In this document: positions 40,505-62,398 of the stretch, one piece after another
How positions within the stretch are numbered: the first letter of the stretch is position 1
How the letters are laid out: each line of letters opens with the position of its first letter
Virus record (IMG/VR): IMGVR_UViG_3300017917_001342
Coordinates: 62,001-126,000 of that record
From: a virus
Length of the DNA: 64,000 nt
Strand: one strand, 5' to 3'
Position numbers and translations under genes: made by a program
Notes under the pieces: model-generated
What the model saw: the letters and a program-made list of their open reading frames with translations, nothing else
The model's database searches: none
Told to the model about the DNA's origin: nothing

Positions 40505-40533
40505 TTGACAGTACCGTAAAGGTATGTTAATGT
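40505..40533 (+). promoter_or_regulatory. Early promoter for sigma factor
   Basis: TTGACA (40505-40510), 17-nt spacer, TAATGT (40528-40533). The position rules out the ATGs at 40524 and 40530 as starts of the sigma gene. Confidence 0.55.
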
Positions 40534-40574
40534 GTCTTCGGCTATATCTCTCACCAACAATGGAGCAACGTTAC

Positions 40575-42029
40575 ATGATAAAGAGCAATAAATCCAAACC
40601 TATTGAACAGCAAACAATGAAAGATTTAGACCCTGTACGAATTTATCTAAAGGACGTTGGTAAAACTCCTCTGCTAAATCACGCTAAAGAAATTGAACTT
40701 AGCAAAACTATTGAAAGCAGTAACCAAACCATTATGGATACACTGTTTGCTATTCCGATGTCTGCGCAGACTGTTAACGATTGGATTACAGAAATTCTCA
40801 ATGGTGTTAAAACCGCAGATGAAGTATTTGATATTGAACTTCAAAGCGATGGTACCATACCTGATTCATTAATGACTAATCTGCAAGATATTAAAAATAT
40901 CTGCGACGCATATGTAAAAAATACCTCTGACAAACAACTCAAAATTCAATTGATTGATGCATTTAACAACACACCACTGTTGACATCTAGTATTGCAATT
41001 ATGATGGACAAAATCCAAGAAATTAACAAAAAGCTACTAGAAGGCGACGGTGCAATTATGCGCTTAGCAATTGATAGCGGCATTAATCGCAATGAATTTA
41101 TCAATTGCTATGTTGGACACGAAGATCTATTGTGGCTTGGTGATAAACAGGGTCCTGCTTGGGAAAAACTACAACGTAAACACAATCAGTTGATGATGCA
41201 TGTGGGTGCAATGCAAGAGCAAGCTGCAAACGCAGGTCTTACTATTAATGAATTGCGTACAGCAGTGAGAGTACTTCGCGCACAGGCAAAGATAAAAGAA
41301 GAAGCAATCAGTCATATGGTAAATGCAAACCTGCGACTGGTAGTTAGTATTGCTAAGAAATATAATCAAAATGGCAATACACAACTGTTAGATTTGATTC
41401 AAGAAGGCAACATCGGTCTTATCAAAGCAGTTGAAAAGTTCAAGTGGCAACTTGGCTATCGCTTTAGTACCTACGCAACTTGGTGGATCAGGCAAGCAAT
41501 TATCAAAACTGCAACTGAAAATAATCGTACTATTCGTATTCCAAGTCATGTGCTTGACACTATCAAAAAGATCAACACAGTCAGCAAAGAGTACATGTAC
41601 AGAACTGGTCGCGAACCGAGCAATGCAGAACTTGCAAAACTGTTGGATTGCGATGAAGAAAAAATTGCAAGAACTATGCGTGTTGCAAAAGATCCAATCA
41701 GTTTAGAAACACCAGTTGGCAACGACGAAGAAGGCAAACTTGGCAATCTCATTGAAGATGTTGAATCAGAAAACGCATTTGATCAAATTTCTCGTGCAGA
41801 TATCAACAAAGTTATCAGTGATGCACTTGAAGGTCTTAGCAGCCGTGAAGAACGTGTATTGCGTATGCGATTTGGCATCGGTACAATGCGCGAATACACA
41901 CTAGAAGAAATTGGTAACAAATTCAATGTTACCAGAGAACGTGTGCGTCAAATTGAAAACAAAGCACTTAGCAGGCTTAAACATCCGCAACGTGCTAAAG
42001 AGTTGCTAAACGCAATAACAGATCAATAA
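40575..42029 (+). CDS. RNA polymerase sigma factor, RpoD-like
   Basis: A 484-residue sigma70-family protein with the primary-sigma layout. The region 1.2-like start is [17 protein letters not shown] long non-conserved insert follows. Region 2 is [31 protein letters not shown] and [13 protein letters not shown]. Region 3 is [13 protein letters not shown]. Region 4 has [12 protein letters not shown] and the helix-turn-helix [20 protein letters not shown]. Full RpoD-like sigmas are rare in phages, whose sigmas are usually short. It would redirect host polymerase to phage promoters. Start [10 protein letters not shown] chosen by promoter position and GGAG. Confidence 0.88.
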
Positions 42030-59129: not shown

Positions 59130-59717
59130 ATGATTGAAAAATACATTCCTAAGTTTCTAGATACACTGTATGACAAACCTATACTGGATTTTTTCACACT
59201 TGAAGAGATTCGTGATGCGTTTCATTCAAATCAGATCATTAGCAAGAAACAAGCTGCAATTGCATTCAAGCATCTGCCTAAACAGACAAGAAATGTTCTG
59301 TATATAGGTTCGTGGATAGGGTTTTTAACGCATTACATTTGCGATAATTATCCGGATACATCAGTAACCGAACTAGACTTAGATGAACGGTGCAAACCAA
59401 TAAGCAAACGCTTTAATCAACAGTTTAGTAACTATATAGAATCATACACAGGTGATGTGTTTGACTTCGATAAGTTTGTTGACTATGACACAGTTATTAA
59501 CTTAAGCTGTGAACACATGTCTACAGACTGGTTTGATTTAATACCCGATGGTACAGACGTTGTGTTGCAATCAAATAACTTTGAAATACCACAACATACA
59601 AATACCTGCAAAACACTAAAAGAAATGTGTTGCAAGTATCCATTGTCGACTGTATATTACATAGACGAAATTGAACTTAACGTATACAGTCGTTTTACGT
59701 TAGCTGGCAAGAAATAA
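59130..59717 (+). CDS. Methyltransferase-like protein
   Basis: A 195-residue protein with a Rossmann pattern. NVLYIGSWIGFLTHYICDN at about 56 is motif I, SVTELDLDERCKPISKRF the acidic strand, and YDTVINLSCEHMS motif IV. The substrate is unknown. It lies between two tRNAs in the RNA island and may modify tRNA or another phage target. Confidence 0.6.
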   Translation: MIEKYIPKFLDTLYDKPILDFFTLEEIRDAFHSNQIISKKQAAIAFKHLPKQTRNVLYIGSWIGFLTHYICDNYPDTSVTELDLDERCKPISKRFNQQFSNYIESYTGDVFDFDKFVDYDTVINLSCEHMSTDWFDLIPDGTDVVLQSNNFEIPQHTNTCKTLKEMCCKYPLSTVYYIDEIELNVYSRFTLAGKK

Positions 59718-59724
59718 ACAAAAT

Positions 59725-59798
59725 GGCCCGGTGGCGGAAAGGCTACGCACCGGATTGCAAATCCGAGTATGGGGGTTCGATTCCCTCCCGGGCCTCCA
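59725..59798 (+). tRNA. tRNA-Cys (GCA)
   Basis: Acceptor GGCCCGG/CCGGGCC, anticodon loop ATTGCAAAT region giving GCA, T-loop TTCGATT, discriminator U and encoded CCA. Confidence 0.93.
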
Positions 59799-59901
59799 AT
59801 CGTACAGTAGTTGTAGAGACCATTCAGCGTATGCCGAGTAGTAAGGGCACAGCGGGAATGAGACACGGCTACTGTGCATGACGTTTTGATAAGTTAAAAG
59901 C

Positions 59902-60077
59902 AATTTGCGTGCCGGAACTGGTATACGGCGGTGTGGTCTAAGCCAATATGGATAGGGTGTGTAATGCTAATAAACACCTTTGCGCTCGTTGATGTACAAA
60001 CATCCGATGGCGATAACTACCGGTGCTGAACAGCGCAACGTAACAGCACAGTGTTGGTTCGATCCCAACTGCAAATT
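59902..60077 (+). ncRNA. tRNA-like RNA with about 120-nt central insert
   Basis: AATTTGC (59902-59908) pairs with GCAAATT (60071-60077). A D-arm GCCG/CGGC with loop GAACTGGTATA and a canonical T-arm GTTGG-TTCGATC-CCAAC are present. No CCA is encoded. Instead of the anticodon and variable arms there are about 120 nt with own helices (GGTGT/ACACC, GATGT/ACATC, GCGCT/AGCGC). It is too short for tmRNA or a group I intron. Function unknown. Confidence 0.5.
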
Positions 60078-60103
60078 GTTTTTAACTTAACAAAAAAATG
60101 CTG

Positions 60104-60132
60104 TTGACAAGCCAAACATACGGTGCTAAGTT
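60104..60132 (+). promoter_or_regulatory. Early promoter for structured RNA
   Basis: TTGACA (60104-60109), 17-nt spacer, TAAGTT (60127-60132). Confidence 0.6.
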
Positions 60133-60156
60133 AACAATATGAAAACAAAACAAATG

Positions 60157-60190
60157 GTTAGCAGTTGCTAACAAGCTCTTTGAAAATTAA
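60157..60190 (+). promoter_or_regulatory. boxB-like hairpin and boxA-like antitermination site
   Basis: GTTAGCA, GT, TGCTAAC (60157-60172) is a short hairpin. It is followed at once by GCTCTTTGAAAATTAA (60175-60190), which resembles the boxA of bacterial rRNA leaders. It suggests Nus-type antitermination of the downstream non-coding transcript. Confidence 0.55.
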
Positions 60191-60213
60191 ATTCGGAAAC
60201 AGATGAAATAATT

Positions 60214-60450
60214 CTGTTTTCAACAGTACAAGGGTTTTAAATTCATACCGGCCTTGGTAAGCTTGTATGAAGACCTGCTACAACCGGACGCCTACCAAGA
60301 GGTGACAAGGGAGAAGGTGCAACATAGGTGCGTTGCAATTGTACTGCTGAAAACAGAGTTAATGGTAGTTTGCTGTTAGTTCTAACAGCATTTGGTGATT
60401 AGACCTTGTAGATATAAGGTTACTAATAGCTAAACCAAAGTTAACTATGA
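60214..60450 (+). ncRNA. Large multi-helix noncoding RNA
   Basis: Part 1 is closed by an 18-position helix, 60214-60231 with 60339-60356 (one A-C mismatch). Inside are CTTGGTA/TACCAAG and TGCAAC/GTTGCA. Part 2 (60357-60446) is closed by AGTTAA/TTAACT and contains nested TTTGGT/ACCAAA, ATTAG/CTAAT and ACCTT/AAGGT, plus hairpin TGCTGTTA/TAACAGCA. No ORF runs through it. The structured stretch may continue to about 60780. It recalls giant phage RNAs near tRNAs (GOLLD/ROOL type) in setting, but I could not match it to any family. Confidence 0.6.
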
Positions 60451-60513
60451 TTATAAAAGGTAATAGAATAGACCAAAGCTTTTTTAGCATTGTCTATTTA
60501 TAGGTTCAGACAG

Positions 60514-60608
60514 AATGCATGAGTTCACAGCGTTCTCTAGCGTAGGTATGTGGATACTACTGTGATTACTTAACCGTTCGAATCGGTGAGTCGACTAGGG
60601 CATGCATT
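60514..60608 (+). ncRNA. Small structured RNA with T-loop-like element
   Basis: AATGCATG (60514-60521) pairs with CATGCATT (60601-60608). Inside are GTAT/ATAC and ACCG-TTCGAAT-CGGT, which looks like a tRNA T-arm but is not next to the closing stem. Possibly a domain of the larger noncoding RNA. Around 60725-60775 CTTATAG/CTATAAG and CTATC/GATAG add further helices. Confidence 0.4.
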
Positions 60609-60788
60609 TTGTTTGTTAGAATTGTGAGCGAGAGAAAGGCTGCATTGAGAGAACAGTTGTCTTTTACGGCATGTGGCAACACATTAGCTTAGGTTAGGCA
60701 TATGCTGTAGAAGGTGCAGTGGCTAGCTATCGAGCAAGTAAGCCTTATAGTTCAGCTATAAGCGTTAGATAGACACATAAAAATTTGT

Positions 60789-60827
60789 TGCGGGGTAGAG
60801 CAGTCTGGTAGCTCGCTTGGCTCTGAA
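60789..60827 (+). pseudogene. 5' half of a tRNA, interrupted in the anticodon loop
   Basis: TGCGGGG, D-arm GTAGAGCAGTCTGGTAGCTC and the 5' anticodon stem CTTGG are intact, with loop CTCTGAA. This would fit tRNA-Gln (CUG) or a Met-like tRNA cut within the anticodon. The 3' half is missing; the late box and ATG of the homing endonuclease follow at once. Confidence 0.7.
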
Positions 60828-60831
60828 ATGA

Positions 60832-60837
60832 TAAATA
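60832..60837 (+). promoter_or_regulatory. Late promoter box TAAATA
   Basis: GATAAATACACT directly precedes ATG 60842; 4-nt gap. Confidence 0.6.
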
Positions 60838-60841
60838 CACT

Positions 60842-61378
60842 ATGAAATATACAATTTATCAAATTACAAACACATTAAACGGTAAGATTTACATAGGTAA
60901 ACATCAAACCAAAAACATCAATGATGGATATTTTGGTAGTGGTGTAGCGTTAAGGAACGCTGTAAAGAAATATGGCAAAGAACACTTTGTAAAAGAAATA
61001 CTGTTTGTATTTGATTCTGAAAAAGAAATGAATGCAAAAGAACGAGAACTTATTACAGAAGAATTTGTAAACCGTGCAGATACTTATAATTTAGGTGTTG
61101 GCGGCGAAGGTGGCCCACACTTTAAAGGTAAGTCGCATTCTACAGAAAGCATTGCCAAGAGGACTGAAAGCCGAAAAGGCTTAAAATTGTCAGACGATGC
61201 AAGACAAAAGATATCCGAGTCTAATAGGCGTAGAACTATTAGCGATGAAACTAGAAAGAAACTTGCTGAAAAAGCAAGATTACGTAAACAAACAGACGAA
61301 ACTAAAAAGAAGCTATCAGAAATAGCTAAACGCAAATTATTGCGGGGTGGAGAAGAGGTTATCTCGTCGGGCTCATAA
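60842..61378 (+). CDS. GIY-YIG homing endonuclease with NUMOD3 repeats
   Basis: A 178-residue protein. IYQITNTLNGKIYIGKHQ is the GIY-YIG core, FGSGVALRNAVKKYGKEHF the next helix, and ELITEEFVNR holds the catalytic Glu region. NUMOD3-like DNA-binding repeats follow (HFKGKSHSTESIAKR, GLKLSDDARQKISESNRR, ISDETRKKLAEK). The 3' 38 nt overlap the following tRNA gene. It begins at a broken tRNA, so it looks like a free-standing homing gene that invaded the tRNA cluster. Confidence 0.88.
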   Translation: MKYTIYQITNTLNGKIYIGKHQTKNINDGYFGSGVALRNAVKKYGKEHFVKEILFVFDSEKEMNAKERELITEEFVNRADTYNLGVGGEGGPHFKGKSHSTESIAKRTESRKGLKLSDDARQKISESNRRRTISDETRKKLAEKARLRKQTDETKKKLSEIAKRKLLRGGEEVISSGS

Positions 61379-61416
61379 CTCGAAGATCAGTGGTTCAAAT
61401 CCACTCCCCGCAACCA
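61341..61416 (+). tRNA. tRNA-fMet-like (CAU)
   Basis: Acceptor TGCGGGG/CCCCGCA, anticodon loop CTCATAA, stem TCGGG/CTCGA, T-loop TTCAAAT, CCA encoded. It is close to bacterial initiator tRNA in the anticodon region, but has a T1-A72 pair and one G-U in the three GC pairs. The D-arm differs from the half tRNA upstream. Confidence 0.85.
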
Positions 61417-61460
61417 AAGAAAACTAGCGCAGGATGATGAATCCGTAAGACGCAAGCAAC

Positions 61461-61541
61461 ACGGTACTGCATAAGCGAGGCTTAAGCATAAATGCAGTTA
61501 AATCGCTAACGGGCAGCGGTTAGTAGAGCCAAACACTTAAT
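61461..61541 (+). repeat. tRNA-leader repeat, copy A
   Basis: Contains CGGTACTGC, GCAGTTAAATCGC and GTAGAGCCAAACACTTAAT in that order. The same blocks recur at 61576-61645 and 62247-62314. Between blocks the copies differ but keep small inverted repeats (CTAAC/GTTAG here). Confidence 0.65.
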
Positions 61542-61575
61542 CTATTACGTTGCCGGGTTTCCGGCCATATTTAAT

Positions 61576-61645
61576 CACGGTACTGGCCTAGACCTAGGGC
61601 GCAGTTAAATCGCAGAGTGACGGATCTGTAGAGCCAAACACATTA
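61576..61645 (+). repeat. tRNA-leader repeat, copy B
   Basis: CGGTACTGG, GCAGTTAAATCGC and GTAGAGCCAAACACATTAT; CAGA/TCTG pairing replaces that of copy A. It ends 1 nt before the aberrant tRNA-like RNA at 61647. Confidence 0.65.
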
Positions 61646-61646
61646 T

Positions 61647-61726
61647 GGGGTCGTAGCTTAACACGACAAAAGCGGGGCGCTTGCGGCCCGAGATACGGGT
61701 ATGCGTTAGTCCCGTCGATTCCACCA
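61647..61726 (+). ncRNA. Aberrant tRNA-like RNA, possible UUG anticodon
   Basis: Acceptor GGGGTCG/CGATTCC (two wobbles), T8, D-stem GCTT/AAGC, stem GGGC/GCCC with loop GCTTGCG, and encoded CCA. The T-arm is ACGGG/CCCGT with an 11-nt loop, TATGCGTTAGT. The D-loop AACACGACAA lacks GG and position 33 would be C. The anticodon would read UUG (Gln), but the fold is poor enough that function as a tRNA is open. Confidence 0.5.
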
Positions 61727-62246: not shown

Positions 62247-62314
62247 TCGGTACTGCTTGGCGGTTAAAGCAGCTAAGTCGCCTTTGTTCCTAGAGGTAGA
62301 GCCACACACTTAAT
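62247..62314 (+). repeat. tRNA-leader repeat, copy C
   Basis: CGGTACTGC, GCGGTTAAAGCAGC and GTAGAGCCACACACTTAAT, ending exactly where tRNA-Tyr begins. Most diverged of the three copies. Confidence 0.6.
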
Positions 62315-62398
62315 GGGTCGTACCCCGCAAGGTGCGGGAGCGGACTGTAACTCCGTCGGGGAAACCCACGCTTGGTTCGATTCCAAGACGACCCACCA
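62315..62398 (+). tRNA. tRNA-Tyr (GUA)
   Basis: Class II tRNA with acceptor GGGTCGT/ACGACCC, anticodon loop CTGTAAC, variable arm, T-loop TTCGATT and encoded CCA. Confidence 0.92.

What the first reader, a model, noticed from the sequence alone, without database searches (positions are those of the whole stretch)
60104..60780. Promoter-boxB-boxA-led multi-helix noncoding RNA in the tRNA cluster
Seen: TTGACA promoter, a short hairpin, then GCTCTTTGAAAATTAA like an rRNA-leader boxA. After that come about 600 nt without an ORF but with nested long helices (18-position closing stem; four nested stems in the second domain). Antitermination signals before a long structured RNA imply an abundant transcript. 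The setting is like that of GOLLD and ROOL RNAs, but no match could be made here.
Basis: partly seen in the sequence, partly recalled or inferred. Interest (0 to 1): 0.86.

Follow-up and report, generated by a model that had tools for sequence, protein, structure and literature searches.

The report
Ribosomal-RNA-style leader on phage tRNA operon
A very large phage starts this tRNA gene cluster, and its giant GOLLD RNA gene, with a header built like the one bacteria use for ribosomal RNA, followed here by structured RNA modules of unknown function, which gives a testable idea of how phages make such long untranslated RNAs.

Summary
Window 60104-60789 has a TTGACA-17-TAAGTT promoter, a 6-bp hairpin ending 2 nt before a boxA word (GCTCTTTGAAA), and about 600 nt without a plausible ORF but with strong helices. 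Rfam has no match; it is not GOLLD or ROOL. It is best read as the composite leader of a tRNA operon in a 518-kb phage. The header has the order of the E. coli rrnB leader. It recurs in 16 of 16 compared units from tRNA clusters of this phage and others, and in 7 of 8 distinct GOLLD genes found, including this phage's own. After it come a long stem with a hypervariable cap, a domain with four relatives, a pseudoknot shared at 83% identity with Synechococcus phage BUCT-ZZ01 (28 of 28 pairs kept, 9 changed on both sides), and about 170 nt without relatives found. The tRNA-Met downstream is split by a homing endonuclease gene. Recruitment of host Nus factors and high abundance are inferred, not shown. 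Against: the header is missing from two related phages' tRNA clusters and from the giant RNA of phage ICP1. No held paper contains both GOLLD and boxA.

The parts
60104..60132 (+). sigma-70-type promoter TTGACA-17-TAAGTT
   Evidence: a 17-nt spacer is best or tied for best in 16 of 16 tRNA-cluster units compared
60157..60172 (+). boxB-like hairpin GTTAGC[AGTT]GCTAAC
   Evidence: 6 of 2000 shuffles
60175..60185 (+). boxA GCTCTTTGAAA
   Evidence: compared with the E. coli rrnB leader
60197..60203 (+). strand A (AAACAGA), an alternative partner of the 5' arm of the capped stem
   Evidence: the three-strand arrangement is in 9 of 18 units, weak here (5 of 100 shuffles)
60212..60358 (+). long stem (60212-60231 with 60339-60358); after its first 11 pairs a variable cap of 125 nt (60223-60347), whose ends continue the stem
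   Evidence: z -4.07; same architecture with different caps in relatives
60363..60508 (+). domain 3: hairpins and conserved GGTARTA..TTTTTTANCAT element
   Evidence: relatives in L005, L142, L168, L173
60509..60617 (+). domain 2: pseudoknot with closing stem, two crossing 6-bp helices, one hairpin and a T-loop-like hairpin CCGTTCGAATCGG
   Evidence: BLAST E 7e-14 to BUCT-ZZ01; 28/28 pairs kept, 9 changed on both sides
60618..60789 (+). structured stretch without relatives found
   Evidence: (z -1.48)
60790..60823 (+). 5' half of a tRNA-Met, cut in the anticodon by the endonuclease insert
   Evidence: intact in L005
60842..61378 (+). GIY-YIG homing endonuclease gene; its last codons run into tRNA-Met 61341-61416

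Best explanation
The region is the 5' leader of a phage tRNA operon that uses the ribosomal-RNA design. Host RNA polymerase starts at the TTGACA promoter. The first RNA out includes a hairpin followed 2 nt later by boxA, which would load the host NusB-S10 complex (with NusA, NusG and SuhB) onto the polymerase. The modified polymerase then carries the long untranslated tRNA transcript past Rho and/or holds the 5' end while distant parts pair. The capped stem and the two following domains are structured leader modules, most likely processing or folding elements removed before the tRNAs mature. The same header is used for the phage's GOLLD gene and two other noncoding stretches of its tRNA cluster. 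Shown: the anatomy, its recurrence in order and spacing, and pair-keeping changes in the pseudoknot. Inferred: Nus binding, antitermination or folding help, and processing.
For: Order and spacing match E. coli rrnB (TTGACT-16-TATTAT, 6-bp hairpin, 3 nt, GCTCTTTAACAATTT). 16 of 16 tRNA-cluster units have TTGACN-17-TANNNT and a hairpin 2 nt (15) or 3 nt (1, L169) before boxA. That script favoured 17; scored without the bonus, 17 is best in 9 and tied in 7. Ten of the 16 were found with a pattern that holds the 3' hairpin arm and boxA, so only their 5' arm and promoter are independent. The exact word GYTWACANGYTCTTTRAMA occurs 4 times in the 518-kb genome, all on + strand inside the tRNA cluster; a fifth copy with 1 mismatch lies outside it (281922); the reversed control pattern at up to 2 mismatches gives 1. 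In IMG/VR 12 of 43 pattern matches have tRNAs within -2/+4 kb, and 11 of those 12 have TTGA(C/T) upstream, against 1 of 31 of the rest. 7 of 8 distinct GOLLD genes found carry promoter, hairpin and boxA, with boxA 516-714 nt before the Rfam match. Hairpin arms change but still pair: GTTAGC/GCTAAC here, GTAAGC/GCTTAC, ATAAGC/GTTTAT, GTAAC/GTTAC.
Against: The boxA here differs at one position (G for A at position 8) from the gamma-proteobacterial consensus GYTCTTTAANA (PMC5725501, passages). Scans of 84,980 species genomes for two long forms of the header gave 0 matches, so no host rrn leader with those words was found; this window's own form was not scanned there. Related phages G021 and G042 have tRNA clusters with no match on the tRNA strand at up to 2 mismatches, and the weak GOLLD match in G042 has a promoter but no boxA after it. 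L003 14122 has a boxA word without a promoter at the right distance and only a weak hairpin. A boxA-like word with a 6-bp hairpin (4 Watson-Crick) also lies at window 14321, outside the cluster. BUCT-ZZ01's hairpin is 8 nt from its boxA-like word. The header also stands before regions without annotated tRNAs in Vibrio phages, and ICP1's giant RNA lacks it. No expression data.
Confidence: 0.66

Rival explanations
1. A stand-alone giant structured RNA of a new class that works like GOLLD or ROOL (for example an RNA cage), only located in a tRNA cluster.
For: Strong folding, no ORF, same header as GOLLD, Rfam-negative.
Against: The domains are separable: L005, L142 and L173 have header, capped stem and domain 3, yet no domain 2 in their records, nor does the L168 contig; BUCT-ZZ01 has domain 2 with another leader. 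In these units tRNA genes follow.
Confidence: 0.14
2. A regulatory switch: three strands A, B, A' compete, so that the tRNA operon is read or stopped depending on the state of the cap (tRNA-like caps could sense tRNA handling).
For: A/B/A' repeats in 9 of 18 units, 8 of them with 0 of 100 shuffles as long; hypervariable caps, 9 of 14 with a T-arm-like hairpin by eye.
Against: The simple scan lists no intrinsic terminator on the + strand in 59720-61420; the cap is not conserved; in the window the A strand is short (7 nt, 5 of 100 shuffles); 9 of 18 units lack the repeat.
Confidence: 0.13
3. A mosaic of inserted hairpins and tRNA debris at a permissive site; only the promoter and boxA matter, the rest is neutral.
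For: Several caps look like rearranged tRNA pieces; 60618-60789 has no relatives found; endonuclease insertion next door; covariation term for domain 3 as a whole is not favourable (+0.4).
Against: Changes on both sides of pairs in the pseudoknot (9 of 28 pairs) and in domain 3 (7 of 46 pairs); the stem is kept while its sequence changes.
Confidence: 0.15

Closest known systems
Bacterial rrn leader (promoter-boxB-boxA), E. coli rrnB
   Same: Order, distances and boxA word.
   Different: Phage genome; followed by tRNAs or GOLLD rather than 16S rRNA; hairpin sequence differs; boxC not looked for; Nus binding not shown.
GOLLD RNA (RF02032)
   Same: Same phage, same tRNA cluster, same kind of header and a capped stem at the 5' end.
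   Different: No GOLLD match in 59700-61000 even at E up to 10.
Lambda nut sites
   Same: boxA plus a hairpin in phage RNA.
   Different: In lambda boxA comes before boxB and needs phage protein N (recalled); here the hairpin comes first.
Leader of Synechococcus phage BUCT-ZZ01 tRNA cluster
   Same: Promoter, hairpin, boxA-like word, and the same pseudoknot domain directly before the first tRNA.
   Different: Hairpin is 8 nt from the boxA-like word; domain 3 not found by the word search; different sequence between.

Membership tests
rrn-type boxBA leader | promoter, then hairpin, then boxA within about 40 nt | tested here: met
   (42 nt from the second hexamer to boxA here, 38 in rrnB)
rrn-type boxBA leader | boxA fits GYTCTTTAANA | tested here: inconclusive
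   one mismatch (G at position 8); consensus from PMC5725501 passages
rrn-type boxBA leader | binds NusB-S10 and alters the polymerase | not testable with these tools
   needs binding and reporter assays; no NusB family match (E up to 0.001) in 7 phage records, so the host's would be needed
GOLLD | match to RF02032 above 150 bits | tested here: not met
   positive control in the same genome 234.1 bits
ROOL | match to a ROOL family in Rfam 15 | tested here: not met
   no such match at E up to 10; that ROOL is in this release is recalled, and no positive control was run
lambda nut | boxA before boxB | tested here: not met
   hairpin precedes boxA; the lambda order is recalled

The most novel reading that the evidence does not exclude
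Large phages run a ribosomal-RNA-like production line for long noncoding RNA: a shared promoter-boxB-boxA header recruits the host Nus complex to tRNA operons and to GOLLD. The strand-exchange stem with an interchangeable tRNA-like cap acts as a co-transcriptional folding or processing device.
Probability: 0.25. Interest if true: 0.85.

Novelty: new variant of a known kind. Interest (0 to 1): 0.72.

Why it matters
GOLLD is still described as a molecule of unknown function (PMC12286853, passages). Finding that GOLLD genes and tRNA operons of these phages share an rRNA-style header says how they are probably transcribed, predicts their 5' ends, and makes a direct test possible (boxA mutation, nusB deletion). 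It also provides new structured RNA modules, one of them a pseudoknot with pair-keeping changes between distant phages.

Tried and rejected
GOLLD/ROOL identity: no Rfam match.

Other known RNA classes: at E up to 10 the region 59700-61000 gives only tRNA-Cys (and weak matches to the same stretch) and four hits at E 4.8-9, which I take as chance.

First scan for the pseudoknot (CAGCGTTCNNTNNCGTAGGT) gave 12 stretches, all judged chance: no T-arm seen and no tRNA in any of the 12 loci. A second pattern gave 0. The covariance model found it only in the two records it was built from, of 21; over 26 loci two further matches had E 1.3 and 1.7.

Scan for the stem word gave 2 stretches: one is L005's own contig, the other (L021) has no tRNA.

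Tail-fibre protein as a way to relatives: 20 stretches, 0 relatives. Portal protein gave 66 loci; 50 of the 66 went into, which found one strong match, to the neighbouring tRNA-like element and not to this RNA.

Vibrio phage ICP1's abundant giant RNA (PMC7567579, passages) was checked as a test case: its ORF-less space has a promoter-like TTGACA, no boxA word on the strand read (one ATTCTTTAATCT on the other), and no Rfam match above a curated threshold. This counts against generality.

Caps as tRNAs: ARAGORN finds a tRNA in 1 of 14 caps (L173), in circular order. One of the 14 (L144b) stands free, without boxA. The permuted-tRNA reading of the second cap of L005 is by eye only.

Similarity of this phage's GOLLD to named phages: no match.

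Full report
Setting. The window is bases 62001-126000 of a 518,643-base IMG/VR virus record. The genome has a T4-type portal gene, and its tRNA cluster runs over more than 30 kb. The finding lies inside that cluster, between tRNA-Cys and a tRNA-Met.

Observation. The promoter, hairpin, boxA, lack of ORFs and strong folding are all there. The promoter by itself is not above chance. What makes it convincing is that the same arrangement recurs elsewhere.

The header recurs. In this genome the exact word covering the hairpin's 3' arm and boxA occurs four times, all + strand, all in the tRNA cluster: 122167, 139924, 140440 and 152849; one more copy with 1 mismatch lies at 281922, outside it. The related record G001 has one exact and one 1-mismatch copy, both in its tRNA cluster. 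A scan of IMG/VR gave 43 stretches; 12 have tRNAs near, and 11 of these have an upstream TTGA(C/T), against 1 of the 31 others. L140 and L160 are near-duplicates. In the table, 16 of 16 units from tRNA clusters have a 17-nt promoter spacer and a hairpin 2 nt (15) or 3 nt (1) before boxA; without the script's preference 17 is best in 9 and tied in 7. Of the 22 rows asked for, two (Vibrio phages) were not found by that script and were read and measured. The other four are the E. coli control and three exceptions: L003 14122 has no promoter at the right distance, BUCT-ZZ01 has an 8-nt gap, and L163 has a weaker promoter and no tRNA in the stretch around it. E. coli rrnB, fetched as control, has the same order and similar spacing.

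The link to GOLLD. Rfam finds GOLLD in this genome at 153462-153918 (234.1 bits). Of 23 records searched, 9 match at E up to 0.001 (8 distinct, since G064 repeats G052); 7 of the 9 (6 distinct) are above the curated score. Below it are G061 (126.2 bits, cut by the contig end) and G042 (81.8 bits). Promoter, hairpin and boxA stand upstream in 7 of the 8 distinct cases (G000, G001, G052, G053, G055, G061, G063), boxA 516-714 nt before the match; the spacer is 16 in G053 and the hairpin gap 3 in G061. The exception is G042, which has a promoter and no boxA. G052, G053, G055 and G063 were chosen by the header pattern; G000, G001 and G061 were not. No paper in the held library contains both GOLLD and boxA; a search for boxA, boxB, phage, tRNA cluster and jumbo phage with at least four of the terms gave none.

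The capped stem. By eye, 9 of the 14 caps carry a T-arm-like hairpin; the cap in this window does not. In 9 of 18 units a further upstream copy of the 3' arm could compete for the 5' arm.

Domain 3 has relatives in four other phage contigs. RNAalifold gives 46 pairs, 7 with a change on both sides in at least one sequence, but a covariation term of +0.4, so support for the whole structure is modest.

Domain 2 is the best-supported structure. It matches BUCT-ZZ01 at 83% over 81 nt, E 7e-14, directly before that phage's first tRNA. All 28 pairs of the pseudoknot are kept in both sequences, 9 by changes on both sides. Shifting the partners by 1-3 columns drops pairing to 24-50%, and 2 of 500 shuffles reach the observed score. 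With two sequences this is strong but not final. A covariance model found it in 2 of 21 records, the two it was built from.

Mechanism. The anatomy is that of an rRNA leader. In E. coli the Nus complex at boxA is reported to aid rRNA folding, while its role against Rho depends on context (PMC5725501, passages). For the phage either use fits: protecting long untranslated tRNA transcripts, or helping giant RNAs fold. I commit to recruitment of host Nus factors at about two in three. None of 7 phage records holds a NusB family match.

Limits. There are no expression data. The viral scans use exact patterns, so absence is weak evidence. Of the 16 units, 10 were found with part of the motif. The header is not found on the tRNA strand of the clusters of relatives G021 and G042. 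ICP1's abundant giant RNA lacks boxA, so the header is not universal for such RNAs.

Noticed in passing
window 60790-61416: A GIY-YIG homing endonuclease gene sits in the anticodon loop of a tRNA-Met: the 5' half is left at 60790-60823, and a complete tRNA-Met follows at 61341-61416, into which the endonuclease ORF runs. L005 has the intact tRNA-Met without insert.
   Followed up: partly
window 59884-60095: tRNA-like element with D-arm and T-arm separated by about 100 nt, closed by a 25-nt inverted repeat (92% complementary); relatives in L005 (85% over 163 nt) and in G042 at 92% identity over 50 nt. No Rfam match.
   Followed up: partly
L005 9009-9089; L173 6805-6919: Caps that look like circularly permuted tRNAs: T-arm, closed acceptor hairpin and D-arm in that order in L005 (by eye); L173 by ARAGORN in circular mode.
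   Followed up: partly
L003 14122-14260; L005 first cap; L140 leader; L144 second cap: A recurrent tRNA-like cap with GGCGTAGGCCRCGCC, a tiny arm around TGT(T)ATGG, and a T-arm.
   Followed up: no
L178 2450-2530; L179 1985-2225: Vibrio phages VspSw_1 (before a DNA-binding protein gene and A1) and Vc1 (two copies about 170 nt apart) have a promoter-hairpin-2 nt-boxA header without tRNA genes annotated in the stretch.
   Followed up: partly
window 61523-61544, 61628-61649, 62296-62317: Repeated spacer word GTAGAGCCAAACAC and similar between tRNAs, three copies.
   Followed up: no
window 40524-42029: The phage encodes an RNA polymerase sigma factor (phrog_351).
   Followed up: no
L163 (IMGVR_UViG_3300022822_000032): Several boxA-like words in tandem in a stretch without tRNA genes nearby.
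   Followed up: no
window 14321: A further boxA-like word (GCTCTTTAACA) with a 6-bp hairpin (4 Watson-Crick) 2 nt before it, outside the tRNA cluster.
   Followed up: no
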